This document shows positions 16,463 through 35,565 of a stretch of 64,000 nucleotides of DNA, in pieces. The notes beneath the pieces are model-generated. The model had not been told where the DNA came from. It did not search any database and saw only the letters and a program-made list of their open reading frames with translations. Location of the stretch: the NCBI GenBank assembly GCA_003194525.1, contig NBIV01000165.1, positions 97,903-161,902 on the forward strand, given 5' to 3'. A program made the position numbers and the translations under genes. Each line of letters opens with the position of its first letter. Within the stretch, counting starts at the first letter, position 1. This DNA is from Gracilariopsis chorda (Eukaryota > Rhodophyta > Florideophyceae > Gracilariales > Gracilariaceae).

Positions 16463-16514
16463 CAAGAGCCGAATCGACACGACGTAGCTGACGTAGGACC
16501 TGCAGCCAATCCGG

Positions 16515-16760
16515 GGAAAGGGCTAAACTACACGATGTAGATAGTGTAGGCGAGTCAGCGCGCATTTGCACCAATAAAAAGAGAGAGTCAGCGGGCACGT
16601 GCCACGGCGAGCTGCACAAGTGCCCGTGCCACTTCAAATCTTACTGTAGCCAATAATACGCCCCTAATTTGAATTTCAACCAGTAGATCCGCAGAGTCAG
16701 AGCATTCCCTCTATCCCTGCTCTCTCCGGCCGCCAAGTCAGCACAACGTAAATGAGATGT
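16515..16760 (+). repeat. Left terminal inverted repeat of element A
   Basis: Matches the reverse complement of 24376-24623 at roughly nine bases in ten. It contains GGGCACGTGCC, a palindrome with a CACGTG core, and a second copy-like GTGCCCGTGCC about 25 bases on. These two are conserved in all three copies of the repeat, including copy C, so they may bind the transposase or a host factor. A TATA-like CAATAAAAAGAG lies between the tip and that palindrome and might serve as promoter for the inward gene. Confidence 0.85.
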
Positions 16761-17064
16761 AGATGCAGTCGAGGTTACCGCGCGGCGTCGTCAAATTGTG
16801 TGGGAATGACAGATACGTCAGGTACTACGTCCTCCTTCACATCTTCGACGACCCTTTCAAAGACTGCTGACTCTCTCTATGTCCTAATCTCCTTCCCGGA
16901 CCGCTCTCGTGTACTGTTCTATTGCTTTGAGCAATGGAGCAAAAAAAGGGTCTGATTACGTAGATATTCTCCCGGAACATGAACTTTATGAAACCTTTAC
17001 GTCGTTCTGGGAGGATCTTGAAAAGCGTACGCAAATGCGCATCAGTGATGGCTCTGCGAGTTAG

Positions 17065-18480
17065 GAAGTCCTTTTTGCGGTTGTGAAGGACCATGTAGCC
17101 AGAATCTTGATCGCAGAAGGCAAAGAAACATCACCGGTTTCTTTGCTATACAGTTCAAAACCTGATTCGGAAATGTGTAGCGATTTGATCTCAACAGCTG
17201 TTTTGAACATGGTAACTTCTGTTGGTGTGGCTTTTGCCTCATGTTCTATTGGAGTGATGCTGACAAGGCTATCGAAGTCATTCAAGGGAAAGAAGGGAAA
17301 CATACCGGAAGAGGATTTGGAAGTGTTCAAGAAGTGGTTTACCTTTAAAGGTAATGGTGATACAGAGATAAACACGGTTTTAGTCCCATTGAACATGTCT
17401 AACAGCCATTGGGGTGTTTTGGTAGGGAAGAAAATTGTCAATGCGGCGCGAGGAACGCAACGATGGACGGTTTGGTTTGGAGGCAGTCTTGGAATGTCTG
17501 TTGATCGAAGGATTCTGAGACTGTTCTCTTTCTTGTTTCCCTTTTGCCTCACAGGAGATGAAGCGCTACGTGCGGTGATATCGGAGCGGAACTACATGCT
17601 ACAGGTAAAAGGGTTTAAGCGACAAAAGGACTCGCACAGCTGTGGTTGCTATGTTGTTTCCCTTTTCACCATGTTCAGTGTGGACCACGGCTGTATCCCG
17701 AAGCGAACCTACGCCTCTGGGTACAGCCGAGCATTGACTGAGAGGATTCGATGGATGTCCATTAGAATCCGGATTCTACACATACTCATGGCGAAGGAGT
17801 TCTATCAAACCGACATTGTTACTGAAATAATGGTCGTACGGCTCCGGTCAGAGCATCGTTTAGAACTCCTTCGCATGAGGAAGGAAGGTAAACAACGGCA
17901 GCGTACGAAACGAAGCGTGGAGCGGAGCATTGGGATGCAGACTGGAAAGGAAGAAGCTGGAACGGAAGAGGGAACGGATGTGAATACAGTTCTGGGAGAA
18001 CGAAAAGTAGGAGAAGGAAAGGTCGTGGATGTTTTCAACGACCCCTGTAGAGAGACGAATCTTCAGCCAATGCCGTTGGGTACGCGCGACTCTGAGGCGC
18101 GTGCTATACGGAAAAGCCAGCGAGCAAAGCGTGTTCATGAGCTGAACCAAAGTTCCGTTCAGAGCAGTGGGATGTGTCTACCCCTGAAGATTCGCATGAA
18201 GCGACGAGTGCAGTTTTCTGATTCTGTTCCGGTTGTAGCGGACATTGTGAACACATTGATTGAGATATGTGTATCACAGCGCTCCGAGATGGTGCACAAA
18301 GCGCTAGGTGAGAAAACTGGAAGACGTTCTGAAGTTAGTGGAGTATCAGGTGTAGAACAGGAGCAGAAAAGGATTCAGACTGGAGAAGGTAGTGAAGTAG
18401 ACATGGAAATTGACGGAAATTCACCAGCAAAGACGATCAGTTGGACACAGGCACAGGTAGAAGTTGAAGCTGAAGAATGA
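17065..18480 (+). pseudogene. Element A, Ulp1/SENP-type cysteine protease region of a protease-transposase gene
   Basis: The frame is open from 17065 (stop TAG at 17062-17064); the first candidate start is GTG at 17083. It encodes a C48 (Ulp1/SENP) protease, the fold that removes SUMO or similar modifiers. Visible features counted from 17083: SNSHWGVLV with catalytic His at residue 109; WFGGSLG, where catalytic Asp is expected, with Gly at residue 134; and DSHSCGCYVVSL with catalytic Cys at residue 187. Copies B and C have GDSL at the Asp position, so A lost it by one base change (GAC to GGC at 17482-17484). A long Lys/Arg/Glu-rich tail follows. The frame ends at TGA 18478-18480, then resumes in phase into the transposase. 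Coding-like sequence in the same phase also extends upstream to about 16890, so the real start is probably lost. Confidence 0.75.
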
Positions 18481-21400
18481 GCGAAGGATACCGCGGCGCC
18501 TTCCGAGCTGAAGGCAGAAACTGAAAAACATATTGAAGAGAAGAAGCAGGCTTCTGAGAATGGTGGTCAAGCTCAAGAGCTCAATGAAGAGCTGGCAGCC
18601 TGTTCTGACGCTCAGATACAGGAGAAGCCGCACATGGAGCTACCATCAATGACTATGTGTGAAGGACGCACTACGAAGACCGGGTCATGCACTGAGGATC
18701 AGGCAGACGTCCAAGAGACATTTGAAAACAATGGAAGGCGTTTATGGGTTGATGTGAAACTTGAGGACGGTGGTGAATGTAAGACAGAACTTGCGATGTC
18801 AAACGAGAGGCTTGTCTCAGCTCTGAAAGGTTTAAAGGAGGTCTTTGACCTCCCTGCACTGGTTGCCTACATCGCTAAGAACTTTGGCTACCTTTATGGT
18901 GTACAATACTTCTCAGTGTTGCAGACGAGGAAGTCGAGGTCGTCCGCGCTGCTCACCGGAAAATTGCGGTGTCTGCGGCACAAGTCGCAGTGCCGCTCCA
19001 ACATTCGGGCAAAGTTCTATCCCATGGAGAGATGTTGGGTAATTGAACAGGACCTGATACACACGCACACCCCCCAACAACTTCCATGCCCCGATGATGT
19101 TGTAAGAAGGAGATTTGAGGGCATTCGCTCCTCTTTAGCCTCCGGTCTACAAGAATGGGAAGAGCACATACGGAAAAATGGAGAATATGTACGTCTGTCA
19201 TGCATATTTCGAACCATATCCCCCTTCCAGGGAGCCGAGTTCTACAACAGCTCATCATGCTACCTCCTAGAGCATTCACATGGTCCTTTATCTCAAAGCG
19301 ATGCAGAAACAGGAAGCGAAGACGATATTGCGTATGGCGACTCCAGTGGGCCTGAGGACTTTTATCCCTTCTATTGCGTGTTGCATAGCACGAAATGCCC
19401 TGAGAGGGGAGGTGTTTTTGATGGCCATGCTTCGCAAAGAGCAGTTCACGAACCCAAACCCGAGCTTTGGAAGCAACACTCCTCGGTTTCACAGGAAGGA
19501 GGTAGGCCGTTTTCCAATCTACCGAAGAGGCCGCAGCAAGGACCTATCTCAGGGGAAGGCATCGGGAAAGGTTGCGTAAACGATGTAAAATGCTCGGATG
19601 GACTTCTGGATAATGCGTGTAACGTCTAGAGTGGCGTAAGAGGCGATTTTGGCATTAGCTCTTTTGAAGCTGACCCCCTTGCTGCTTCTCCGAACTCCTC
19701 AACACAAACAGTGGACGCGAAATGCGAGCGTGCACGCCACAGCGCTGTGGGCGCCGAATTAGGCTAAAAAATGAGTGAGGAGAGTGAAACTCTCAACGCA
19801 AACGTTGCATATGCGCAGCAGGTTTCAGATGAGCAATCCGTTGAACGGGAGGAGGCGCTGCTCATTGATCGATTCTTAGATGACGAAGAGGAGGTTCCTT
19901 CATGCTTCTTCGAAGACTCTGATGGTGGCATCCTGAATGAAGAATAATCGGAATCGAAGGAGAAGGATGGCCTTGGAGAGAAGGACGAAAACTACTGGAC
20001 AGAAGATGGTGATGAAGAACTGGGCACGGAATCCGTACAGAACACGATACCGAATGAGAGAATTGAGGAGTGTTTTAAAGCAGCAGTCTTAGCCTATCTG
20101 GAAACCCTTCCTCTCAATGCTCCTGGTGTCACGGTTCTGAAGGAAGTTCAATTTATCGCGGACTGCTTCGGGTACAGCTTATTCGTAAGGACTTCTATAT
20201 ACTTTGGAGAACGAAAGCGATCTCCGGATAAGGCAAAGTCTCCCAAGAGTCGTGGTGCTGAACGTGGGAATAGAAGGGTGCTGAAGAAGGGAATCTTGAA
20301 GTGCGATCAATACAATAACAAGATGACGCGATGCCTCTTCTCGATAACGATTAAGACGGAGGATTCTGGGCAGGAGGAAGATGGTGGAATGATCTACGTG
20401 GCTAATTTAAATGGTTGTGAATATGGACATGGTCCCTCTGGGAGCTTTGGTATTAGACATCTCAAGCCGCAAATGCGTTCTGAAGCGATACATATGACGA
20501 ACGATTTGCATATGAGCTTTAGAGATACCATACGATACCTGGAAGACAAGTACAATCAAAAGATAAATCCGGTATCGGCGAGGAAGAAGTTGAGGTATGC
20601 TTCCTCCACAAGCAATCCCCGCGATTTGGAATGTGTAAGGTTGTGTGATCTGCTCTTTTCGTTGAGCCAGGAGGATGCAGGGAATAAGGGATTCTTCGCT
20701 GCGGATGATTCGGGTAGGATGAATTACGCTTGTTGGTCGTTTCGAGAGTGGATGGAAGACTACCAGAAGTTCGGCATTGTTCCGGGGGTATCTATTGATT
20801 GTAAAGCCATAGCCAATAGATACGGTTTCCCTCTGGTCACCATTGATGGAAGAGCCAATGATGGTCATGTGTTGACATTTTTCATGGGGTATATGTGCTC
20901 CGAAACAGAAGAGGACTTCGTACGAATTCTGTCCTACTTCAAGTCTATAGTCGCCGTCTCAGCGGCGATGGTAGTGATGGACCAGAACACTGCGTGTATA
21001 AATGCAGCTGAGAAGGTGTTCAATTCGTCCTATATAAGCCTCGACGAATGGCATCTGAACGAGAATCAGAAGAAGAATGTGGCCAATTGGTGTAGAAAGA
21101 TTGGTAAGATGGAGTGGATGCACGATATGAAGAAAGACCTGTTCAACCTCAGAAAGTCATATACGTCGGAAACGTTTTTCGAAAGGAGAAGAATGCTAGA
21201 ATCCAAGTACTTTGATGCTTTTGACGATCGTCTCCCTGTGTGGTATAAGTACTTGTACCACTATAAGCCGCATATGCTGGTGTCTTGCTTCCGAAACGCG
21301 GCTATACCTACCCGTTACATGTTCCAAGGAACTGGCTACACCGAATCTTCTAACTCTGCATACAAGAAGATAATTATATCGAAGAAGATTCCCTTGTGCA

Positions 21401-22704
21401 AGGTTCCTTTGGAGGTTCGGCGTATATCCCAAGAACGGGCTGATACCCGGAACTTGGAGCTTGTAAGAACGTTATCTTCTCAAAGTGGGAGATATCGGAA
21501 GACAAGAGAGCTTGAGCACTTTCTACCTGTAGAAGTTGTAGACAGCCTGGTGGCTGAGTACACGAACTACGCCTTGGCGCACTTCGTAGATTTGAGCTTT
21601 AAGCCCTCGAAGAACTACATTCTTTCCAGCACAGACGTTGTGGATTATTCACAGGAAGCGTGGCCGGAAGCGATCAGAAACCTGGAAAGTAGTTCAACCC
21701 CAGCAATGGGACCTGTAGCTCGCTTTAAGTTGAAATGGGGAAGCCATCTGAGTCAGAGCCGGAATGCGTCGGTGGATGAAGAGCGCTCATCACAGGAGAC
21801 CGTTGTGCAATTCTCAAAAAGGTATACGGGGTCGGGGGATGACGTTAAGGCAGAGTTTATTGGTGTCTGTTCCTGTGGGCAGCCCTGGTCCGTTGGTTTT
21901 GCTTGTCGTCACATGGTTCGATGTGCTGTGGTTTATCAGAAAGAACGTCTGCGGTTCCCTGAACTACGAAACATACTAGGATACTTCATACCTCTTGAAG
22001 CGCTTTTCTCTACATACTGGAGAAAAGATACTTTGGCCATGACAGTCCCATACTTGGCGAAACTCAGGTCAGAGACCCGATACTTCAACAACGAGGAGAT
22101 GGATTACCGACTACGCCGTTTTGATGAGTCGACGGAGAAAGAGTTTATCCCCATTGACTCAGATATACTTAGAACCAGTAGAGAAGACTCGGAAGTAGAT
22201 GGGTACAATACGTACATGGAAGGAAAAAACCTCTACGATGCTTTACATCGACAAGCTACTGTAATTGGACGTGTTGCGGTGAGTGGAGTTCTACGCCTTT
22301 TAAGGGATGCCATCGCGGACATTCAGCAAGGAAAAGCGACACACTTCGAAGCTAGAGGTACCTTTAAAACAAGGCTGGCTTCATTAACAGAACACGCGGA
22401 AGAAACAGAGAACACTGTCACTTTACTGCATCCATCGTCTTCTACAAAAAATTTCAGTTCATCACGGATCCGTCCGCCAAACAATGGACGCCACAGAGCA
22501 CAACGGAGAAAGAAAAGCTCCTTGGAGCGCACGAGAAAGCGAGCGAGGACAAGCCCACATTCATCCCAGGAATTGTCTCAGAAAGACTGTCACCCACCTT
22601 CAACATCCTCAGAACCAGCTGTGACACCCTCAACTTCTATAGCCCAAGACGTGCAAGACAAAGCACTTCGAATTATGTCAAAGTCTCTCGGACACATCCA
22701 CTAG
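18481..22704 (+). pseudogene. Element A, MULE transposase (FAR1-like fingers, DDE core, SWIM finger)
   Basis: All segments share the phase of the upstream protease. Stops at 19627-19629, 19765-19767 and 19945-19947 break it; 19948-22704 is open. Order: a Cys/His finger-like domain (LRCLRHKSQC to HTHTP, about 18955-19075); an acidic spacer; a second FAR1-like finger (KKGILKCDQY to GCEYGHGP, about 20280-20430); the MULE catalytic core with Asp in VSIDCKAIANRYG (20797-20799), Asp in VVMDQNTA (20980-20982) and Glu in GYTESSNS (21343-21345); and a SWIM zinc finger, Cys-x-Cys then Cys-x-His (codons 21868, 21874, 21904, 21910). A basic Ser-rich tail ends at 22704. The catalytic triad is intact but the stops make this copy defective. 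The transposase would cut and join the terminal repeats of the A family. Confidence 0.88.
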
Positions 22705-22992
22705 CTGTATCATTGACCACAGGCGTTTGATCCCTTTCCTTCTTTCATAATTTCTTTGAGCTCTTTCTGTTCTTCATGAAAGCCTTGAGGTCTTGCTTCT
22801 TTCGCCTTCTGCTTCACATCAATTCTTTATTCAACTTCTAGATATCGTCGCGTATTCTAAAACCGCGTCCAAGAACGCGTGAACAGTCTTTCTTGCATCT
22901 GAGAACCCCGAAATGGAAGCCCAGTTGGAATTGTTCCATGCACCTCGATCACTGAAGAGCCAACCTATCTTTGAAAAGACTAAACAATAGTA
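22705..22992. other. Convergent intergenic spacer in element A
   Basis: About 290 bases between the transposase stop and the end of the antisense acidic gene. T/C-rich, without coding potential; it probably carries the two 3' ends. Confidence 0.5.
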
Positions 22993-24375
22993 TCACCTGA
23001 ACTCATGAACAGCAATCGGAGATGCAGTTTCTTTCGACTTAATTTCAACTGTCCCCAACAGTACTTCAGGTCCATGCTGGTTCACGTCGGACTCGTCAAT
23101 CCCAGTTACACAACTCGAATCTCTTGTTATAGCTTCAGTCGTTGCACTGTCCACACGCACGTTTTCTGTGAGCATTCCTTCTGCGACCACAATGGGAGAC
23201 TGCTCTGAGTCGACCTGTTGAATGTCACCTAATTCCTCAACGACTGCTTGACCGTATACCTTATCCGGATCGACAACATCTTCATAGTCTTCTTCAATAT
23301 CAGAATGAGCGTCAAGGTCTGCGGGTCTCCCTTCCGCAGTTAAGTGAAGCTCCTCCACTTCGTCCCGAACATCGAACTCAACAGGCGCTTGTCCGCTCAG
23401 GCCCTCATTTTCCTCATCAGCTTCGTCGTACTCATCAACATCCTCTCCTACGACATTGAGAGTAACAAAAGCCAGTACAGGTGGCTCTGCTTCAAATTCC
23501 TCGTCGCCACCATACTCTTCCCTTGTGGCATCAACTTCTTCAATGTACTCCTCGTCTGCACCATCCTCAGCACCTCCTCCGTCAACAACAGCCGCATCTA
23601 CATCAACCTCGAGTCTGGGAATTGATTCTTGTCCCTGCTCTTGCGATGTGTCCACATCTTCGGTAGGCATTCCACCATCTTGCCCTTTAGCTTCGCCCTC
23701 GACATCGAAAGCAGTCGCTTCCGGTTCAACTACGCGCTATTGGCCAGTCCCAGAGCTCTCGTCGTCTTCTCCTTCGGCCTTTTCGAGTTCTGCGGCCAAA
23801 TCCGGCGTGTGTGCAGCACGATCTAGCGGTTTATCAGTGTCTTCATCCGCGTTCTCTTGCAAGCCCTCGGTTGTGCCTTCTAGGGTTTCCAAATTAGATT
23901 CCCTATACTTCGCTGTTAAGTCGAGCAAGCCTGGCTTGTCCCCAGACGTTGTAGCCACATCTTCAGACCCATCCTTAGAGATGGAAGCTGAAAAGAATCC
24001 ACGGGTTGTCTCAGTGACGTCCTTGTTGGCGATTTCTTGAACCCTGACGTCGCTGGTCTCGGGAATCGCTATCTGCTCCCCGACTTTGTGGAGCTCAGTT
24101 TCCACTGGATTCTCTGTACTGCAGCCATCATCCACCTGCGTTGCGATCACCACGGCTTCCTCCGCAACAGGTTCGATGGTCCCTAGATCCAAATTGTGCT
24201 CTCGAGGCTCATCTTCGGTAATTGGGTAGGCGTCATCCCCAGCTTTGTCCACTGGGTCCTGGGCCGTTGTGTCGTCTGCAACGCCAATAATACCCACCGC
24301 ACGATCACGATTCCCTAATCCTCTTCTTCCTCGGCTACGCTCACCCGTTTGCACAAAGATGGCGCCAAATGGCAT
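22993..24375 (-). pseudogene. Element A, antisense acidic protein, one internal TAG
   Basis: A minus-strand frame runs from the ATG at 24375 to a TAG at 23737-23739 and then continues in the same phase to 22993, about 460 codons in all. Composition is extremely acidic (Asp/Glu with Val, Ala, Gly, Thr) with very few Lys or aromatic residues and no predicted fold. The N-terminal 30 residues, MPFGAIFVQTGERSRGRRGL, are basic and hydrophobic and differ from the rest. The ATG lies just inside the right terminal repeat, so the repeat may act as its promoter. Element B shows no equivalent, and copy C is truncated before this part. A role as a DNA mimic, chromatin or anti-silencing partner would be speculation. 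The in-phase continuation after the TAG supports one original gene. Confidence 0.6.
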
Positions 24376-24623
24376 TTATCTCATTTACGTTGTGATGACT
24401 TGGCCGCCGGACAGAGCAGGGATAGAGGGAATGCTCTGACTCTGCGGATGTACTGGTTGAAATTCAAAATAGGGGCGTATTATTGGCTACAGTAAGATCT
24501 GAAGTGGCACGGGCACTTGTGCAGCTCGCCGTGGCACGTGCCCGCTGACTCTCTCTTTTTATTGGTGCAAATGCGCGCTGACTCGCCTACACTATCTACG
24601 TCATGTAGTTTAGCCCTTTCTCG
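24376..24623 (-). repeat. Right terminal inverted repeat of element A
   Basis: Reverse complement of 16515-16760 with scattered differences. Same GGCACGTGCCC palindrome and TTTTTATTGG box. The outer flank CCAGTCCGT is the second target duplication. Confidence 0.85.
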
Positions 24624-24632
24624 CCAGTCCGT

Positions 24633-24755
24633 TAGTGGGGTCCAAAATGTGTGACTCAGCTTTTGGGGGCATATGGGCACAGAGGGCACCGTGTAATGCA
24701 CAGTCTATGCTAGAGTGGGGTTCAAGATCTGCTGACTTGTAGCTCAACGACTGGT
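24633..24755 (+). repeat. Inner part of the left terminal repeat of element B
   Basis: GGGGTCCAAAATGTGTGACT and about 100 further bases match the reverse complement of about 30605-30720. Separated from its outer 52 bases (16463-16514) by the insertion of element A. Confidence 0.8.
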
Positions 24756-25072
24756 CACATTGATGGCGTAAAACATGTCAAGCTCTCATCTCGACGAAGT
24801 CAACAGCACGCCGATTTCAAAACGACGTCAATGGCTGCCGTCATCGCTTCTTTCTGGTATCGCGTCTTTCCGTTTTTGCTATCCCTCCTGTCTTCTTTTA
24901 TTCTATCACCCCCCGATATTCTTGTAATTCTTTCTCTTTGCAACCATTGTGTCTTATGTTAGCCTTTTATTATGTTCTGCAAAGCTTGTGATCTTACTCT
25001 TATCAATGGTTCTTGATTTAGGTACGTTTTATATGCGAATTCATGATTATGAAGCATGACAATTTCTAACGC

Positions 25073-26596
25073 GTGATATATTGTAATACAGATGAATCAT
25101 GCTCTTTACTTGATGACCGTGTCTTGAACACTATCCTATCTTTCGATGATAACCCCCATGCCTCAAAGTTGTGCCGACATTTTTACTCAAACTTCGCTTT
25201 GAACACTGGCATGAACGTAACGGATTCTTTACATCGTTGTTATATCGTCCACAGCAATATTTATCGAATCATGAAGGCTGAAATGTCTTACGACATCCCC
25301 ATCTCAGCGGTTTACAGCTCTCTTCTAAAGTCACAAATGTGGTCTGATCTTATAAACGCCGCTTTGATGGACATAAAGCTGAAACCTAGTGTTTGTACTT
25401 GTTCAGATAGCGTGGGTGCATCGCTATATAATTACTACCGGCGTTTGGAAAAGAATGATAAAAGTCACGCTGACTTTCTTAACGAAATGAGAAATGACTT
25501 CTTGAAAAACTTCACTGGCGATGATAGCACGATTCATACAGTTGTAATTTCTGTATATATTAGTAGAAAACACTGGGTAGCTTTTGTTGGAAAACAATAT
25601 ATTGGATCTTCTCGTGCGCGAAGAGAAAAGCCAACGGTGTTGTTTGGAGATAGTTTGCGCTTCGCTGTTCCGAATGAGTGTATGAAGATCTTCAAAGAGG
25701 TATTCGAATATTCCATATTGGATGGGGAGGGCATTGCTGCTGTGTCCAAGAGAAACTACATATTGGACAATTTAGGATACAAGCTTCAAAGAGACGTTTA
25801 TAGCTGTGGTTGCTATGTGATATCCCTTGCAACTGAATTTGCTGCTGAACGGGGATTCGCTCCGAAACAAACGTACAGAAGCATTTCTAATAGAAATCTC
25901 ACTCATCGGTATCGCTGGGTCGCATTGAAGAATAGAATACTACAGGTATTCTTGGCTTCTATCTTTTATGAAGTTGTTGCTGTGAGTGAAACCCAAATTT
26001 CTTCGTATAGAGCTCATCACCATGATCAATATTTTAATCTGAGGGAGGAAGGTCGAACTCGTCTGAAGAAGATTCGATATTCACTTTTACGACGCTCGGA
26101 CTTCTTGCCTCCTGTGCGTGTAAAGATGCTTCATAAATTGAGCTACGCCAGTGAGCGTGTGGATCATGGGAAGGATCAAAAGGAGAATAAGGTCACTGAT
26201 GATGACACTTGGAGCCCTGCGGAAGAGGGAAAGTATGCAGGAGAATCTGAAGTAAAGCATGTTGGGGAAGACAGTGCTGCAGAGGAAGGGCAGCATAAAG
26301 AGATGGAGCGCGATAGAGAAAGTGGCATCAATGAAGTTCAGTATGTTGCTGATATCAAGGATACTACTGCTCTCCTTATAAAGCGACAGCATGTAAAGGA
26401 TATCAAAGAAGAGGTACGGAGAAGGATTGAGTATGAGAACTCTAATAAGCCACCAATGCCTCGGAGAATGTCAGAGACAAAGGTACGATTTAGAGTACCG
26501 AAAGAACTCAGAAGTGCGCCGTTCGAGGTGAAAGAGATCATGAATGAAATCATGGAGGGAGTGTTTAAAATGTCTCTAGGGGGTATTCTTCGCTGA
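25073..26596 (+). pseudogene. Element B, Ulp1/SENP-type cysteine protease region
   Basis: An uninterrupted 507-codon stretch with the C48 protease triad intact: His in SRKHWVAF (residue 167), Asp in LFGDSLRF (193) and Cys in VYSCGCYVISL (245). Between them lie the expected spacing and a hydrophobic core. The C-terminal 200 residues are Lys/Glu-rich with an RRMSETKVRFRVP segment equivalent to the tail in element A. The frame ends with TGA at 26594-26596 but coding sequence goes on in the same phase into the transposase. Although the annotated start is ATA-type at 25073, ATGs occur slightly inside. Protein identity to the A copy is low outside the motifs, so B belongs to a separate, older lineage of the same element type. 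Confidence 0.75.
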
Positions 26597-29500
26597 GATC
26601 CTATTCAAAAGCGTTTTAAATATGTCGGGGAGGTGGGGGATATGATCCAACTTGTCTATACTATCAATCGAAAGAAAGGGTTCGCATACGGTCTTCATTA
26701 TAGGCGCTACATTCAGAAATCAGTGAAGAAAGACCCAAGGCGAGCCCGTATCCTGACTGCAAGATTTCGTTGTTTGCGGGACAAAGTTTGTCCTTCAAGT
26801 ATAGTGCTGTCATTGTGGAGCATAACATCTGTGAGATGGAATACCGTCGTAAACTTCAGTCATTCCCACGAACCGCTGTATGAAAATGTAGAGACAAAGG
26901 TAAAGCGTTGTTTCGCGATGAAGTAGAAGCTGTTGAATTACTTTCAGGGTTTTCGAACGAAAGTAAGAGGGCATGGACATGAACATTGGGATTCCCTTGA
27001 CGAGAAATGCTTCCCCTTCGCTCCGGTTGTCGGTAGTGTGAACGGCACCACTGTCTTTCGTGACGAGAGCACGGTTCGTCAGAACTGCATCCTCATCTCA
27101 GGAAAGCATCCTCAATCGATTTATGCCCATGTACCACCCCCAATATAAATCCATGACCACAATCTCCTTAAGATGGAACATGTTTCCATCGGGACTTAGA
27201 AACCAAAACCCATACTGCGTCCCATGTCACGAACCACTGTCAGGGAAATGCAGAAAGTTGACGGGGATGGTGAACAGAAGTTTACAGATCACGGAGATAT
27301 AAATTTATCGCAGATAAAGTAATATGGCGTCAAAAATGCATACATTGACGTCAGTAACGTCAGTGACGTTGCCAATAGAAATGAAAAATCGTTTCATGAC
27401 AATTTTTGCGACGAAAAACACGAGACACCTTCACAGATAAAGCCGTTCTTGGAGTTCGACAGCGTCGAAAGGAGCAAAGTTCTTAGCATTATTTCCAGAG
27501 TTCAGGCAGAAGAAGCCGATCATATGATCGAAGATATGAATAACGGTGAGTACGTTGACGGCTCTGAGCTCATTGAACAGTTTATGTCAATGGACGAAGA
27601 CGAGGACGTCCCCTACGATTTGTTGGCCATCCCAAACGATGAGAAGGCCAGCTTCAATGAAACTGTCGTTCACACTGGCAATGATAGTGGAGACGCCGTC
27701 AACGCCAGCTCTTCCGATGAGGAGCTGTCTGCTGTAAGAGAGGAAGCCAACGAAGAATTGGATGTAAACGAGGTTTTCAAGGCGGCTGTCATCGCGTATT
27801 TTCGAAGTGTGCATATGAATGCACCCGGGCTGGATGTTGTTCAGGAAGTAAGGTATATTTCTGAATATCTGGGATTCAGTCTTAAATGCCGGACATCTAT
27901 CTTTGTCGGCAACAAACCCATGGAGGTTGATTGTAGCAGTGGGACCGTCGTTGAAAATCGTGTGTTGAAAAAATGCATATTGAAATGCCATCAACGACAT
28001 GAGAAGCAGCTTTGCGACTTTTCCTTGACGATTAACACGCTCAGCCCTCAGCGGAAAGAGGATGGTAGATGCTACGTAGCTGAGTTCCAAAATCCGACGC
28101 ACAATCACTCTCCTGCAAAAGATAATGGAGGGATTAGGCATCTATCTCCAAAGATGCGGTCAGAAGCCGTGCACATTGTGAATTACTTGCATATGAACCT
28201 CGTGGACACCGTTCGATATCTGTCCAATCAGTATGGGGTCCCTATCAACTTTCGTTCTGTCAGTCAAATCGTAGGCTACAACAAGTCTTTTGCAAATCCA
28301 AAGGATTTAGAGTGCACCAAACTTCTAGAGAGACTCAGTTCTCTTCATGAGGTGGACCCGCAGAACAAATTCTCCTTTACGTGCGATGCACAAGGTCGGA
28401 TGACCTCCGCTTGCTGGGCTTTAAAAGAATGGATTGAAGATTATAAAAGGTTTGGGGTGGTCCCAGGGATATCGGTTGATTGTAAAGCAATTGCCAATCG
28501 TTACAGCTTTCCTCTGTTTACGATAAACGGAAGGGCTCATGATGGCTTTACGCTTATATACTTCATGGAGTTCATGGCTGGGGAAACGAAGGAGGACTTT
28601 GTGCACATGTTAACACGTTTCAGGTCCATGATACCCATCTCCCCTTCACTTATTTGTATGGATCAAAGTACTGCCTGAATTGCAGCCACTGAAAGAGTGT
28701 TTGGCACATCATTCATCTGCTTAGATGAGCGGCATCTAAGAAAAATCAGATGAAGAACGTCATCTCTTGGTGTGCAACCATCCGCAGTCCGCAGTGGTGT
28801 GATGATATATCTCGGGATCTCTTCAATCTGCGGAGGTCTCGCACACTTCGCATTTTCACCAACCGGCGTACTGAGTTCCAAAGAAGATACTTTGCAGGCT
28901 TTACTGAGACACTACCTTCTTGGTATGATTATCTATACATCAACCATTTACAGCTTCTAGTAGCTCGCTTCAGAATTGCGGCAATTCCACGTCTCTACCT
29001 TTTTCAGGGTACAGGATACACAGAATCTTCAAACGCTGTTTATCGAGCATATGTGCTGTCAAAAAGGGTTTAATTCTCCAATATTCCTCTACAAATGAAA
29101 TCGATAACGACCAAGAGAGCAGCCCAACGAAACGAAGCTCGTTTGCGCGCTCTTTCTCCAGTTAGCTCGCGCTCAATATCTACAAGAGATTGTCAGATAC
29201 TACTTCCACCGGAGGTACTTGACGAAATGATTGTGGGGTATACAAGTTCTGGCCTTCGCATGTTCAAAGAGATGAGTGTCGTGAAGGCCAAAAACTATTT
29301 GGTCTGCAATGCCTCAGTTCTTTGTCCAGCAGAGGTGGAATGGTCCGAGCTCAGCCTTGAAGAAGAAGTTTCTATTAGTGCTGTGGCCTTTTTTGAGCTC
29401 AGTTGGAGCTTGCACTTACTCAAAAAAGTGCAACACCCTCCACCTTCTGCAGAAAGACGTTTAAAAGTTCTTTTTGCAAGACGTGAAATAGATGACGAAG

Positions 29501-30303
29501 ATGGTGGGGATAGTGAACTTCTTGTCAGATGCGACTGTCAGAAATCCCCATCTATGGGCTTCCCGTGTCGACACATAATGAGATGTGCCACGGTGTACGG
29601 AGAAATATCTGAACGACAACCGGACGTTAAAGAAGTCTTAGATGAAAACATGGAGCTCCACGCCCTGTTTGATGACTATTGGAAGGTAGATTCGAACTAA
29701 TTTGATTACTTCAACATATTTGTACTTCGAAAACAAGCTTCGGTTCTCGATATGATGAGAATGAAAGAAAGGATGGACACAGAAGATGTAGAAAGCGGCG
29801 AAACATACGAGGATATCGATCAGTTTCTAAAACAACCTTCAGAGAGAGAAGTACGCACATGCGGGAAGTGGTCTGATTCTCAAGGGCTATTTGACCAAAT
29901 CAAACGAGTGACCTCCGGTCTCGGTCCATATGCCGAAAATCATTTCCAGCAAGTGCTTCGAGCGGCCATTTAGAATTACAACGAAGGAAAACTTCTACCT
30001 CCCACAAGCTTCAAGACATATGAACATTGTAACAATCCTGAATAAGACTTTGGAGGTATAGAATGGGCAAATGGGCGTATTCCCGTAATCAAAACTCCAA
30101 ACAAGGCTAATGTACGGATAGTGAAGCGTAAGAAAAGCTTCACGGAACGGTTCACTGCAAAGACAAAGCGCGTAACTAATGGCGATGATGTTAACGATCA
30201 CTCGCAAAGGCAATCTTCCAGAGCCACAGAACCATCGAGGACAGAAATCAATGAAGCAGTAGAAAAAGCTATGCACATCTTCGAAAAGCACGAAAGAGGT
30301 TAG
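26597..30303 (+). pseudogene. Element B, MULE transposase, multiple stops and one frameshift
   Basis: Same domain order as element A. A Cys/His finger-like domain (about 26690-26880) and an acidic linker come first. Then a FAR1-like finger (CILKCHQRH to NPTHNHSP), the core with Asp in ISVDCKAIANRY and Asp in ICMDQSTA, Glu in GYTESSNA, and a SWIM finger (RCDCQKS to FPCRHIMRC, about 29530-29585). Phase 2 carries 26597-28740 despite stops at 26924, 27146, 27197, 27320 and 28676. A 2-base loss near 28740 moves the remainder to phase 1, with stops at 29698 and 29971, ending at 30303 with a basic tail. Functional motifs are still readable, so decay is moderate. It would have mobilised elements with the B-type termini. 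Confidence 0.85.
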
Positions 30304-30599
30304 GAGGTAAGTAAAACATTGCTACAGATACAACAAATGCTGATTGATCTTACCAACAAAGTTGAACGAAATACTTACAACGAAATAGAACTTTTAACTG
30401 GGTGTGATGTGCGCTTCCCACCAGATGAGAGAGTAGAGTCGGCGCCGTCAATAAACGAAAAGCATCGGAAAGAGCGACAGGGACAGGGAGACAAGCAACA
30501 TAGACGCGATGAGGATAGATTTTTGAATAGTATAGTGCGCGCCATTCCAATTCTCTTCGACGATGCGGGGACTTCTTGCTCAGTGAGTGGAGTATCTGT

Positions 30600-30780
30600 A
30601 TCCCAGTCATCGAGCTACAAGTCAGCAGATCTTGAACCCCAAGCTATCATAGGCTGTGCATTACACGGTGCTCAATGTGCCCATATGCCCCTAAAAGCTG
30701 AGTCACACATTTTGGACCCCACTACCGGATTGGCTGCAGGTCCTACGTCAGCTACGTCATTTCAATTCGGCTCTTGTCGT
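30600..30780 (-). repeat. Right terminal inverted repeat of element B
   Basis: Reverse complement of 16463-16514 joined to 24633-24755. Differences are few, mainly transitions. It ends at 30780 and is followed by the target duplication. Confidence 0.8.
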
Positions 30781-30789
30781 CACCGTTGC
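30781..30789 (+). repeat. Right 9-bp target-site duplication of element B
   Basis: CACCGTTGC, identical to 16454-16462. Confidence 0.8.
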
Positions 30790-30836
30790 AGACCCACCGC
30801 GATCCCGCCAGAGTTTCCGTGGGAACCTCCATGATC

Positions 30837-33243
30837 CTAAAGTACTTGGATTCTAGCTCCCCTCTTTTCGAAAAATGTTTCGGACGTATATGAATTTCTG
30901 AGGTGAAACAGGTCTTTCTTCATATTGTGCATCCAATCCATCTTTCCAATCTTTCTACACCAATTGGCCACATTCTTCTTCTGATTCTCGTTCAGATGCC
31001 ATTCTTCGAGGCTTATATAGGACGAATTGAACCACTTCTGAGCTGCTTTTATACATGCAGTGTTCTGGTCCATCACTAACATCGCCGGTGAGAGGGCGAC
31101 TATGGACTTGAGGTAGGACAGACTTCGTACGAAGTCCTCTTCCGTCTCGGAGCACATGTACCCCATGAAAAATGTCAACACATGACCATCATTGGCTCTT
31201 CCATTAACATGACCAGAGGGAAACCGTATCTGTTGGCTATGACTTTACAATCAATAGATACCCCCGGAACAATGCCGAACTTCTGGTAGTCTTCCATCCA
31301 CTCTCGAAACAACCAACAAGCGCACTTCATCCTACCCGAATCATCGGCAGCAAAGTATCCTTTATTCCCTTCATCCTCCTTGCTCAACGAAAAGAGCAGG
31401 TCACACAACCTTACACACACCAAATCGCAGGCAGTGCTTGTGGAGGAAGCGTACCTCAACTTCTTTCTTGCCCATACCAGATTTGTAATTTGATTGTACT
31501 TTTATTCCAGGTATCGTATCGTATCTCTAAAGCTCATGTGCAAATCGCTCGTCATATGTATCGCTTCAGAAGGCATTTTCGGCTTGAGATGTCTAACACC
31601 AAAGCTCTCGGAAGGACCATGTTCATGTTTACAACCATTTAACCTAGCCACGTAGATCATTCCACCATCTTCCTCCTGCCCAGAATCCTCCGTCTTAATC
31701 GTTATCGAGAAGAGGCATCGCCTCATCTTGTTATTGTATTGATCGCACTTCAACATACCCTTCTTCAGCACCCTTCTATTCCCACGTTCAGCACCACGAC
31801 TCTTCGGAGACTTTGTCTTACCTGGAGATTGCTTTCGTTCTGCAACGTATATAGAAGTCCTTACGAATAAGGTGTACCCGAAGCAGTCCCCGGTAAATTG
31901 AACTTTCTTCAGAACTGTGAAACCAGGAGCATTGAGAGGAAGTGTTTCCAGATAGGCTAACACAGCTGCTTTAAAACACTCCTCCATTTTCTCATTCGGT
32001 ATCGTGTTCTGTACGGATTCCGTGCCCAGTTCTTCATCACCATCTTCTGTCCAGTACTTTTCATTCTCCTCTCCAAGGCCATCCTTCTCCCTTGATTCCG
32101 ATTCTTTTTCATTCAGGATGCTACCATCAGAGTCTTCGAAGAAGCATGAGGGAACCTCCTCTTCGTCATCTAAGAATCGGTCAGTGAGCAACGCCTCATT
32201 TTCTTCAACAGATTGCTCATCTGAAACCTGCTGCTCATATGCAACGTTTGTGTTGAGAGTTTCAATCTCCTCACTCATTTTGGAGCCTAGCTTGGCACTC
32301 ACAGCTCTTTGGGGTGCACGCTCGCATTTGGCTTTCATTGTTTTTGTGGAGGAGTTTGGAGAAGCAGCAGGGGGGTCAGCTTCAAAAGGGAAAATGCCCA
32401 GATCGCCTATTACGCCACTGTCGACGTTAAACGCGTTATCCAGAAGTTCATCCGAGCATTTTACACCGTTTACGCCATCTTTCCCGATGCCTTCCCCTGA
32501 GATAGGTCCTTGATGCGGCCTGTTCGGTAGATTGGACACCGGCCTACCTCTTTCCTGTGAAACCGAGAATTGTTGCTTCCAAAGCTCCGGTTTGGGTTCC
32601 TGCACTGCTCTTTGCGAAGCATGGCAATCAAATACACCTCCCTTTTCAGGTCAGTTCGTGCTATGCAACACGCAATAGATAGGAAAAAAGTCTTCAGCAC
32701 CACTGGAGTCGACATACGCTATATCGTCTTTGCTACCTGTTTTTGCATCGCTTTGAGATAAAGGTCACGTAAATGTTCTAGGATGTAGCATGATGAGCTG
32801 TTGTAAAACTCTACTCACTGAAAGGGAGGTATGGGTCCAAACATGCATGACAGACATATATATTCTCCATTTTTCCGTATGTGCTATTCCCATTCTTGTA
32901 GACGGGAGGCTAAAGAGGAGCGAATGCCATCAAACCTACTTCTCACAACACCATCGGGGCATGGCAGTTGTTGAGGGATGTGCGGGTGTATCAGGTCCTG
33001 GTCAATTACACGACATCTCGCCATGGGATAGAACCTTGCCCTAGTATTGGAGCAGTACTGCAAATTGTGCCACAAAAACAGCAATTTTCCGGTAAACTTC
33101 TCACACTACCTTGACTTCTTCGTCTGCAATAGTGAGAAGTATTGTACACCCTAGAGGTAGCCAAAGTTCTTCGCGATGTAGGCAAACAGTGCAGAGAGGT
33201 CAAAGAGCTCCTCTAAACCTTTCAGAGCTGAGACAAGTCTCTA
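30837..33243 (-). pseudogene. Copy C, MULE transposase N-terminal half
   Basis: From a TAG at 33241-33243 (GAG in element A) downward, phase 0 and then phase 1 carry the finger region, acidic spacer, FAR1-like finger and the first catalytic Asp segment (VSIDCKVIANRYG). The frame 32605-31502 is open where element A has three stops. This shows that the acidic spacer between the two fingers is real coding sequence. Small indels near 32700 and between 31502 and 31175 break it. The second catalytic Asp (LVMDQNTACIKAA) is still present in the last frame (31181-30837). Confidence 0.8.
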
Positions 33244-34858
33244 GTTTGACATCGCAAATTCTGTCTTACATTCACCACCGTCCTGACGTTTAACATCAAC
33301 CCCTGAACGCTTTCTATTGTTTTCAAATCTCTCTTGGAAGTCTGCCTGAACCTCAGTGCATGAGCCGGTTTTCGTAGTTCGTCCCTCAGAGATATTCATT
33401 GATTGTAGCTCCATGTACGGCTTCTCGTGCACCTGAGCATCAGAACAGGCTGCCATCTCTTCACTTAGCTCCTGAGATTCCCCAAAACTCTCCAAAGCCT
33501 CCTTCTTTCCTTCATTATGTTGTTCAGTTTGTGCTTTCAGCTTGGAAGGCGCCGAGGTACCCTTCCCTCTTTCTTCAGCTTCTAATTCTACCTGTGCCTG
33601 TGTCCGACTGATCGTCTTTGCTGGTGAATCTACGTTATATTCTATCTCTACTACACAACCTTCTCCATTCAGAATCTCTTTCTGCTCCTCTTCTACACCT
33701 GATACTTCAGAAACTCTAGAATCACTTCCGGCTTTCTCATCACGCGCTTTACACACCACCTCCGAGTGCTATGATACACCTCTCTCAATCAATGTGTTGA
33801 GAATTTCCGCTACAATCGGAGTAGAATCAGAAAACTGCACTCGTCACTGCATGCGAATCTTCAGGGGTAGACACATCCCACTGCCCTGAACAGAACTTTG
33901 GTTCAGCTCATGAACACGCTTTGTTCGCTGGCTTTTCCGTATAGCACGCGCCTCAGAGTGGCGCGTACCCAAGGGCATCGGCTGAAGATTCGTCTCTCTA
34001 CAGTGGTCGTTGAACACATTCACGAGCTTTCTTTCTCCTGCTTCCCGTTCTCCCAGAACTGTATTCACATCTTTTTCCTCTTTCTTTCCAGCTTCTTTCT
34101 TTCCAGTCTGCTTCCCAATGTACCGCTCCACGCTTCGTTCCCTACGCTGCCGTTGTTTACATTCCTCCGTCATGCAAAGGAGTTCTATACGATGCTCCCA
34201 CCGGAACCGTACGCCCATTGTTTCAGTAGCGATGTCGGTTTGAAAGAACTCCTTCGCCATCATTATGTGTAGAATCCGGATTCTACTCGACATCCATCGA
34301 ATCCTCTCAGTTAACGCCCGGCTGTACCCATAGGCATAGGTTCGCTTCGGAATACAGCCGTGGTCCGCACTGAACAGGTTGAAAAGGGAAACCACATAGC
34401 AACCACAGCTGGGCGAATCCCTTTGTGGCTTAAATCCTTTTACCTGTTACATGTAGTTCCTCTCCGATATCACCGCACGTAGCGCTTCATCCCCTGTGAG
34501 GCAAAAGGAAAATAAGAAAGAGCACAGTTTCAGAATCCTTCCATCAACAGACATTCCAAGACTGTCTCCAAACCAAACCGTCCATCGTTGGGTTCCTCGC
34601 GCCGCAGTGACTACTTTCTTCCCTACCAAAACATCCCAATGGCTGTTGGACATGCTCAAAAGGACTACAACGGTGTTTATCTCTGCGCCTCCATTACTTT
34701 TAAAGGTAAACCACTTCTTGAACACTTCCAAATCCTCTTCCGGTATGTTTTCCTCCTTTCCCTTGAATGAATCCGATAGTCTTGTCAGCATTACTTCAAT
34801 AGAACATGAGGCAAATGCCATACCAACAAAAGGTACTATGTTGAATACAACTGTTTAG
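33244..34858 (-). pseudogene. Copy C, Ulp1-type protease with in-frame linker to the transposase
   Basis: The protease motifs are SNSHWDVLV (His), WFGDSLG (Asp present, unlike element A) and SCGCYVVSL (Cys). Stops occur at 34447-34449, 33844-33846 and 33769-33771, all in one phase. From 33759 to 33244 the phase is fully open and passes through the protease tail, the point where element A has TGA (here AGA at 33568-33570), and the start of the transposase region (KPYMELQSM). The 50-codon linker has the same length as in element A and similar residues. This is the key evidence that protease and transposase were one protein. Confidence 0.8.
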
Positions 34859-35565
34859 ATCAAATAGCTACACATTTCCAAATCAGGTCTTGAACTATGT
34901 CCCAAAGAAACCGGTGATGTTTCTTTGGCTTCTGCGATCAGGATTATAGCTACATCGTTCTTCACAACCGCAACAAGTACTTTGTACCTCGCAGTGCCAT
35001 CGCTGATGCGCATTTACGGATGCTTTTCAAGATTCTCCCAGAACAACGTAAAGTTTTCATATGGTTCATGTTCTTGGAGAATATCTACGTAATCAGACAC
35101 TTTTCTTTGCTCTATTGCTCTAGGCAAAAGAACAATAAACGACAGCGGTCAGGGAAGAAGATCAGGAACTATAGAGAGTCAGCAGCCTTTGAACGGGTCG
35201 TCGAAGATGTGTAGGGGGACGTAGTACCCGACGTATCCCTCACTCCCACACATTTCGACGACGCCGCGCAGTAAACTTGACTTCATCTACATCGCGTTTA
35301 CGTTTTGCTGACTTGGCGGCCTGAGAGAGCAGGGATAGAGGGAATGTTCTGACTCTGCGAATCTACTGGTGAAATCCAAACTAGGGGCATATTATTGGCT
35401 ACAGTAGGATCTCAAGGGGCACGGGCACATTTACAGCTTACCATGGCACGTGCCCGCTGACACACTCTTTATATTGTTAGAAATGCGCGCTGACTCGCGT
35501 AAACTATCACGTCGTGTAGTTTAGCCCTTTCCCGCAAATCAGGTGACACCATCGATCGAGCACAC

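What the first reader, a model, noticed from the sequence alone, without database searches (positions are those of the whole stretch)
17065..34858. Ulp1-type protease fused in frame to a Mutator transposase in three element copies
Seen: in elements A, B and C the protease lies upstream of the MULE transposase in the same phase. In C the phase is fully open from the protease tail into the transposase (33759-33244), with AGA at 33568-33570 where A has TGA at 18478-18480. The linker has equal length in A and C and keeps its amino-acid character. Known: plant Kaonashi-type MULEs carry ULP1-like genes, usually described as captured genes. Inference: the ancestral element made one protein of about 1,800 residues. 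It combined a SUMO/ubiquitin-like protease with a transposase and might cleave itself or remove SUMO from silencing factors at its insertion sites.
Basis: partly seen in the sequence, partly recalled or inferred. Interest (0 to 1): 0.88.

Follow-up and report, generated by a model that had tools for sequence, protein, structure and literature searches.

The report
Protease fused to red-algal Mutator transposase
In a red alga, several families of a "jumping gene" encode one giant protein that joins the DNA-cutting transposase to a SUMO-protease-like enzyme, and both halves have been kept by natural selection, which suggests that the protease helps the element to move or to escape silencing.

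Summary
The window's three copies are broken, but the rest of the genome settles the question. Two unbroken copies of the same element (1914 codons) run in one frame through a C48/Ulp1-like protease, a Cys/His module, a MULE DDE transposase and a SWIM-like motif. Three divergent families (1702, 1738, 1789 codons) share the layout. Most elements read have long TIRs and 9-bp target-site duplications. Nuclear phycobilisome-linker genes, some on the same contigs, mark the host as a red alga. In two family comparisons the protease is under purifying selection like that on the transposase (dN/dS 0.23-0.24 against 0.18). Protease and transposase share one branching order in six lineages, so the fusion is old and was inherited as a unit. 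A true captured gene fragment lies elsewhere in the element, antisense and in some copies only. Ulp1 domains in Mutator elements are already in print for plants and animals, so this is a new variant of a known kind. The likeliest role is a deconjugating enzyme tethered to the transposase; self-cleavage is less likely. Activity, fold and transcript are untested, and one open copy has lost the catalytic Cys.

The parts
16514..24622 (+). Element A: full-length TIR-MULE of the 1914-codon family, gene broken by 5 in-frame stops
   Evidence: 98% DNA identity to L011 over 16514-18030 and 18059-23789; terminal repeats 16516-16758 and 24378-24620, 97%
16505..16513 (.). Left copy of A's 9-bp target-site duplication (right copy 24623-24631, one mismatch)
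17065..18480 (+). A: open stretch with the C48/Ulp1-like protease and first part of the linker, ended by the TGA at 18478-18480; the motif FGDS of intact copies reads FGGS here (catalytic Asp lost)
   Evidence: C48 18.0 bits, below the 20.7 cut-off; motif
18880..19179 (+). A: Cys/His module in the linker (C..C..HxH); coordinates carried over from residues 641-740 of the intact protein
   Evidence: invariant C, C, H, H in 5 of 5 lineages; no Pfam match
20812..21066 (+). A: MULE DDE transposase domain
   Evidence: PF10551 31.5 bits, cut-off 27.6
22993..24375 (-). A: antisense 3' cargo, captured gene fragment (two open stretches, 247 and 212 aa)
   Evidence: 93.6% DNA identity to a place on contig C65 over 942 nt
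16463..30776 (+). Element B, interrupted by A in its left terminal repeat
   Evidence: terminal repeats 92% over 175 nt when the flanks of A are set side by side; flanking TCACCGTTGC repeat read by eye
25181..26077 (+). B: C48-like protease, catalytic motifs HW, FGDS and QRDVYSCG present
   Evidence: 34% to the A-family protease; motifs
26597..26926 (+). B: Cys/His module of the linker
27569..30288 (+). B: transposase in two frames (27569-28738 and 28702-30288)
   Evidence: MULE 18.1 bits, below cut-off
30839..35533 (-). Element C: A-family relic, 5' end at 35533, cut at the 3' side; protease and linker 35118-32773, transposase pieces 32764-31205 and 31223-30861
   Evidence: about 89% DNA identity to L011

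Best explanation
The three window copies are relics of red-algal TIR-MULE transposons whose single long gene encodes a fused protein: N-terminal C48/Ulp1-like cysteine protease, linker with a Cys/His module, a second Cys/His module, MULE DDE transposase, SWIM-like motif, basic tail. SHOWN: the frame is unbroken in several copies, four families read share the layout, the protease is conserved under purifying selection in the two comparisons that could test it, and protease and transposase were inherited together. INFERRED: the Cys/His modules and SWIM motif bind the element's own ends (general knowledge of MULE transposases), so the protease is carried to the element as part of the transposase. 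There it removes SUMO or another ubiquitin-like protein from chromatin-silencing proteins, repair factors or the transposase itself, which eases transposition or expression.
For: Unbroken 1914-codon frames in L010 and L011, 1702 in L036, 1738 in L037, 1789 in L035. C48 and MULE both over their Pfam cut-offs in P0001. Chance of open linkers of these lengths 2e-15 to 8e-9 by base composition. dN/dS protease 0.23 (0.16-0.34) and 0.24 (0.17-0.33), transposase 0.18. Identity matrices of the two domains correlate at 0.988, best of 720 permutations, same unrooted tree. His, Asp, Gln, Cys motifs kept in most copies; weak hits to RickCE, yeast Ulp1, XopD; host C48 gene matches at 28%, E 9e-8 in a four-sequence search. 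A SUMO-like gene is in the genome. No Gly-Gly position is shared by all linkers. SUMO conjugation supports transposon repression in other eukaryotes (PMC9406493, passages).
Against: The only fully open C190-family copy found has Tyr for the catalytic Cys; L041 has Ser, C276 has Glu and window A has Gly at catalytic positions. C48 scores are modest: 18.2 and 19.9 bits in P0005 and P0004, no match in P0003. 51 of 111 MULE hits had no upstream protease hit within 6 kb in these capped searches. Within the A family the intervals are wide (protease 0.27-1.13 against L020). The fold could not be modelled. No expression, substrate or activity data exist; SUMO as the substrate is inferred.
Confidence: 0.55

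Rival explanations
1. The protease acts in cis: it cleaves the fused protein in the linker and releases a free transposase, so the fusion is a precursor (polyprotein).
For: Long, weakly constrained linkers (dN/dS 0.59-0.81 in two comparisons) could hold a cleavage site; C48 relatives such as adenain process polyproteins (recalled, no call).
Against: Only one alignment column has Gly-Gly in two of four families and none in more; C48 proteases mostly cut after Gly-Gly-like ends (recalled). Other site types were not tested.
Confidence: 0.12
2. The domain has lost or is losing catalysis and now binds a ubiquitin-like protein or serves as structure.
For: Cys to Tyr in the only fully open C190-family copy; other catalytic-site changes in broken copies.
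Against: Its siblings C181 and C83 keep Cys; the open copies of the A, C33 and C63 families keep all motifs.
Confidence: 0.1
3. Two proteins are made from the open frame, by an internal start, promoter or splicing, and the open linker is incidental.
For: No RNA was seen; a separate transposase with its own start cannot be excluded from DNA.
Against: Linkers of 275-600 codons stay open in four divergent families, chance 2e-15 to 8e-9 each, and hold a conserved Cys/His module.
Confidence: 0.13
4. The protease is a captured host gene fragment, a passenger, as usually stated for plant MULEs.
For: MULEs capture genes often, and these elements do carry a captured fragment at their 3' side.
Against: Purifying selection and co-inheritance; best identity of the element proteases to the four strong host C48 genes is about 26-30% over partial stretches; sense and in frame in four families.
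Confidence: 0.05

Closest known systems
Rhodophyte MULEs 'MULE-Cc', groups 36 and 38 of Dupeyron et al. 2019 (PMC6446971; passages)
   Same: Red-algal hosts, one ORF, SWIM, terminal repeats of 192-640 bp, 9-bp duplication for one group
   Different: No protease is mentioned (ulp, C48, peptidase, protease: 0 occurrences in the main text); 'various inserts, potentially host derived' for one group. Their sequences could not be compared.
Mutator elements with Ulp1 domains in hydra, lancelet, maize, rice, melon (cited in PMC2836005; passages)
   Same: C48/Ulp1 domain in a Mutator element; the paper aligns Ulp1 domains of 'Mutator TPases'
   Different: Order, frame and selection not seen by me; no red alga named in that list
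Kaonashi (KI) MULEs of Arabidopsis and ULP-carrying grapevine MULEs (PMC2528002 section 10, PMC13317346 section 11)
   Same: Ulp1-like protease inside Mutator-like elements
   Different: Plants: non-TIR (KI) with reverse orientation, or downstream of the transposase ORF in either orientation, scattered across the tree. Here TIR elements, protease N-terminal, same frame, co-inherited
Ginger1 transposons and CACTA-ULP proteins (PMC2836005, PMC2528002)
   Same: Ulp1 (or OTU) protease fused to a DDE-type transposase in one protein
   Different: Other transposase superfamilies; in Ginger1 the protease is C-terminal

Membership tests
Mutator-like elements (TIR-MULE) | MULE DDE transposase domain | tested here: met
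   PF10551 34.2, 46.8, 40.7 and 30.6 bits in P0001, P0003, P0004, P0005 (cut-off 27.6); D, D, E and DxWH positions invariant, their naming as catalytic is recalled
Mutator-like elements (TIR-MULE) | Long terminal inverted repeats | tested here: met
   225-346 bp at 96-100% in L010, L011, L012, L015, L018, L035, L037, L021; L036 only 77% over 176 bp
Mutator-like elements (TIR-MULE) | 9-bp target-site duplication | tested here: met
   Exact in L010, L012, L018, L035, L037 (10-bp match in three) and L009, L011, L015; one mismatch in window A and L021; none found in L036
Mutator-like elements (TIR-MULE) | SWIM zinc finger | tested here: inconclusive
   Over the cut-off in P0005 only (22.5 vs 19.6), below in P0003, not listed in P0001 and P0004; CxC...CxH invariant in 5 of 5 rows
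Peptidase family C48 (Ulp1/SENP) | Catalytic His, Asp, Gln, Cys in order | tested here: met
   Present in open copies of A, C33 and C63 families; Cys replaced by Tyr in the open C190 copy, kept in its siblings
Peptidase family C48 (Ulp1/SENP) | Score over the curated profile cut-off | tested here: met
   P0001 22.0 bits vs 20.7; P0004 19.9 and P0005 18.2 below, P0003 not listed; the domain alone matches (E up to 1) in 6 of 7 sequences
Peptidase family C48 (Ulp1/SENP) | Ulp1 fold and protease activity on a ubiquitin-like protein | not testable with these tools
   Structure prediction was off; activity needs the bench
Kaonashi (KI) MULE | No terminal inverted repeats; ULP gene in reverse orientation to mudrA (as given in PMC2528002) | tested here: not met
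   Terminal repeats present; protease on the same strand and in the same frame
Pack-MULE / transduplicated gene fragment | Close match to a donor gene in the host | tested here: not met
   Protease: 26-30% to four host C48 genes. For the 3' antisense cargo the feature is met: 93.6-94.7% DNA identity to C65
Rhodophyte MULE-Cc (Dupeyron groups 36/38) | Falls in those clades in a transposase tree | not testable with these tools
   Their sequences are not held; only TIR length, duplication, ORF number and SWIM could be set side by side

The most novel reading that the evidence does not exclude
A lineage of red-algal Mutator transposons carries its own sequence-targeted deSUMOylase (or deconjugase of a related modifier) as an integral part of the transposase: an ancient built-in anti-silencing or repair-steering enzyme that stays attached to the element's ends.
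Probability: 0.38. Interest if true: 0.8.

Novelty: new variant of a known kind. Interest (0 to 1): 0.62.

Why it matters
Ulp1 domains recur in Mutator, CACTA and Ginger transposons, and a 2026 review calls the function in the Mutator (KIU) case unknown (PMC13317346 section 11). Many plant cases could be stray captures. Here the protease is fused, old, co-inherited and conserved about as strongly as the transposase in the comparisons made, beside a true captured fragment that serves as an internal contrast. That turns the question whether a SUMO protease serves a transposon into a direct test on natural unbroken copies.

Tried and rejected
Captured-gene reading: rejected for the protease, accepted for the 3' antisense cargo. 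Self-cleavage at Gly-Gly: looked for, not found; other sites not tested. SUMO-interaction-like motifs: a loose pattern gave 1 in P0003, 2 in P0005, none in P0001 and P0004; not used. The two Cys/His modules as a duplication: profile comparison probability 2%, E 0.024, not supported; neither module matched a relevant Pfam family. A protease-less autonomous family: three of 23 near-full-length transposase hits without a protease hit were read; one is a truncated C63-family copy, two are 47-50% relatives with no protease upstream, undecided. Relatives outside this genome: none confirmed in viral contigs (16 pattern stretches) or prokaryote genomes (33); no eukaryote collection was at hand. 18S identification of the host failed. 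The first domain tree used a wrong frame for window B and was replaced.

Rows dropped before counts: the dN/dS table left out pairs with under 300 codons or with protein identity under 0.45 or over 0.995; bootstraps were run on 5 chosen pairs.

Literature limits: ten paper searches listed no report of a C48-MULE fusion in red algae; most listed papers were seen only as listings. Seen as passages: PMC2836005, PMC6446971, PMC9569675, PMC9406493, PMC5735166; whole sections: PMC2528002 section 10, PMC13317346 section 11. In PMC10398659 the terms gave nothing. van Leeuwen 2007 and Hoen 2006 were not held and are known only through citing passages. Repbase was not searchable.

Full report
WHAT IS THERE. 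The window (G000:C165:97903-161902) holds three Mutator-like elements. Element A (16514-24622, +) is a full-length copy with terminal repeats, inserted into the left terminal repeat of element B (16463-30776, +); its 9-bp duplication now differs at one base. Element C (35533-30839, -) is an A-family relic of about 89% DNA identity, cut at its 3' side. All three genes are broken: A has 5 internal stops in one unshifted frame; B has 5 stops from 25181 to 28675 and then a frameshift; C has 10 stops in 35118-32773 and then frameshifts. Its claim for C is true for the linker only: the open stretch ends before the first Cys/His module, and C's DDE domain now lies in another phase.

UNBROKEN COPIES. 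The broken copies cannot show what the element makes, so I looked in the rest of the genome. Two A-family copies (C206, C14) have a 1914-codon frame without a stop, 99.5% identical in DNA. A third (C12) is open for 1887 codons. Three further families have one open frame each: 1789 codons (C190), 1702 (C63; also C384 by its table row) and 1738 (C33; also C41 by its table row). Protein identity to the A family is 28, 33 and 39%. All four align from protease to tail.

DOMAINS. In P0001 residues 108-252 match Peptidase_C48 at 22.0 bits (cut-off 20.7) and residues 1285-1369 match MULE at 34.2 (27.6), in one protein. The other families score 18.2 and 19.9 for C48, both below the cut-off, or are not listed (P0003). 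The window's own A protease scores 18.0. The domain alone matches C48 in 6 of 7 sequences at E up to 1. A profile of the seven finds six PDB sequences at E up to 1: RickCE (0.011), yeast Ulp1 (0.09), XopD (0.15 and 0.24), a ULP-protease-domain entry (0.17) and, unrelated, cysteine synthase (0.88); His, Asp, Gln and Cys align in the two best. A host C48 gene (C44) matches the A-family protease at 28% (E 9e-8, a four-sequence search). Each piece is modest; together they agree. The fold could not be modelled. Between protease and transposase the linker holds a Cys/His module (C..C..HxH), invariant at those residues in all five lineages compared. A second module with a similar pattern precedes the DDE domain; profile comparison does not support common origin (probability 2%, E 0.024).

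ONE UNIT, INHERITED TOGETHER. Of 111 MULE hits in the genome 60 have a protease hit upstream on the same strand within 6 kb; three other neighbour pairs were flagged, two of them between the window's own elements and one on C248 (same strand, downstream). In 37 of 60 the phase agrees, 9 and 14 in the other two. With a 446-residue transposase query the figures are 55 of 96 hits and 40 of 63 near-full-length hits, with three other pairs flagged (two in the window, one on C159). These searches score only the best candidates, so absence is weak evidence. Three of the 23 near-full hits without a protease were read: one truncated C63-family copy and two 47-50% relatives with no protease upstream. 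Across six lineages (A family, C190, C63, C33, C244, window B) pairwise identities of protease and transposase correlate at 0.988, the best of all 720 label permutations, and the unrooted trees are the same. The fusion is older than these families.

SELECTION. Nei-Gojobori dN/dS with bootstrap over codons. C33 family against C244: protease 0.23 (0.16-0.34), transposase 0.18 (0.12-0.26), linkers 0.69 (0.43-1.13) and 0.59 (0.39-0.91), Cys/His module 0.65 (0.32-1.48). C63 family against C59: protease 0.24 (0.17-0.33), Cys/His module 0.26 (0.14-0.45), linkers 0.81 (0.55-1.18) and 0.60 (0.37-0.91). C63 family against C295: transposase 0.18 (0.14-0.22). Two A-family comparisons with relics are higher and noisy: protease 0.49 (0.27-1.13) and 0.39 (0.21-0.73), transposase 0.38 (0.24-0.64) and 0.83 (0.59-1.25). 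The partner copies carry stops themselves. So the protease is conserved about as strongly as the transposase, while the linker is a loosely constrained but coding spacer; linkers this long would stay open by chance with odds of 2e-15 to 8e-9. Against a universal need for activity: the only fully open C190-family copy found has Tyr for the catalytic Cys while its siblings C181 and C83 have Cys; changes at catalytic positions also occur in window A, C276 and C144.

RECENT MOVEMENT AND AN INTERNAL CONTRAST. Six A-family insertions have different, exact 9-bp duplications (C206, C52, C240; C14, C369, C12), and the terminal repeats are 98.7-100% alike in the five of these copies where most of both lay in the fetched stretch. 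The C63 copy gave no duplication and only 77% terminal repeats. Between the transposase stop and the right terminal repeat, the A-family copies read carry one of two unrelated antisense stretches. One of them (window A, C14, C12 and others) is 92% identical in protein to a piece that one search places in a 2072-codon frame on C65, and 93.6-94.7% in DNA; the 1.1 kb fetched there was not open throughout in a forward frame, so the donor gene's exact limits are not known. This is what an ordinary captured fragment looks like. The protease differs: 5', sense, in frame, in four families, and far from the host C48 genes.

HOST. Seven PBS_linker_poly (phycobilisome linker) hits, four on contigs that also carry these elements (C12, C427, C144, C60), place the genome among red algae. 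The species is not established. A SUMO-like gene is present on C15.

HOW IT MOST LIKELY WORKS. The transposase brings the protease to the element's ends. There it may strip SUMO or a related modifier from silencing proteins, from repair factors or from the transposase. SUMO conjugation supports heterochromatin from yeast to mammals and transposon repression in Drosophila (PMC9406493, passages of section 4.10); whether this holds in red algae is unknown. The Ginger authors suggested that Ulp1 and OTU domains act on repair factors during transposition (PMC2836005, passages). Self-cleavage is possible, but no Gly-Gly position is shared by all families.

KNOWN OR NEW. Ulp1 domains in Mutator elements are in print for hydra, lancelet, Arabidopsis, maize, rice and melon, in grapevine downstream of the transposase in either orientation, and fused to CACTA and Ginger1 transposases. 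Red-algal MULEs with one ORF, SWIM and long terminal repeats are in print without mention of a protease in the main text. Ten searches listed no report of this fusion in red algae, but Repbase and two key papers were out of reach. I therefore file it as a new variant of a known kind.

Noticed in passing
window 22993-24375 (-); L011:8187-8927 (-); G000:C65:122899-123597: Antisense 3' cargo of window A and other A-family copies: an acidic 247-aa open frame, no Pfam match, 92% identical in protein to a piece of a longer frame on C65; a captured gene fragment.
   Followed up: partly
L010:8339-8836 (-); G000:C218:86798-115879: A second, unrelated antisense cargo (166-189 aa) in L010, L012, L015 and L018; 61 hits in the genome, with four 72% relatives in long open frames (700 and 1639 codons) repeated on C218.
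   Followed up: partly
L035 (G000:C190), protease motif: The longest open copy of its family has Tyr in place of the catalytic Cys, while siblings on C181 and C83 keep Cys.
   Followed up: yes
window 58652-59710 (-) and 46898-47800 (-): Two open frames with helicase C-terminal domains (40.6 and 60.3 bits); the first lies near an unassigned 545-codon frame at 60587-62224 (-).
   Followed up: no
L050 (G000:C3) and L051 (G000:C96): Transposase relatives at 47-50% to the C63 family without a protease upstream; truncated copies or protease-less relatives.
   Followed up: partly
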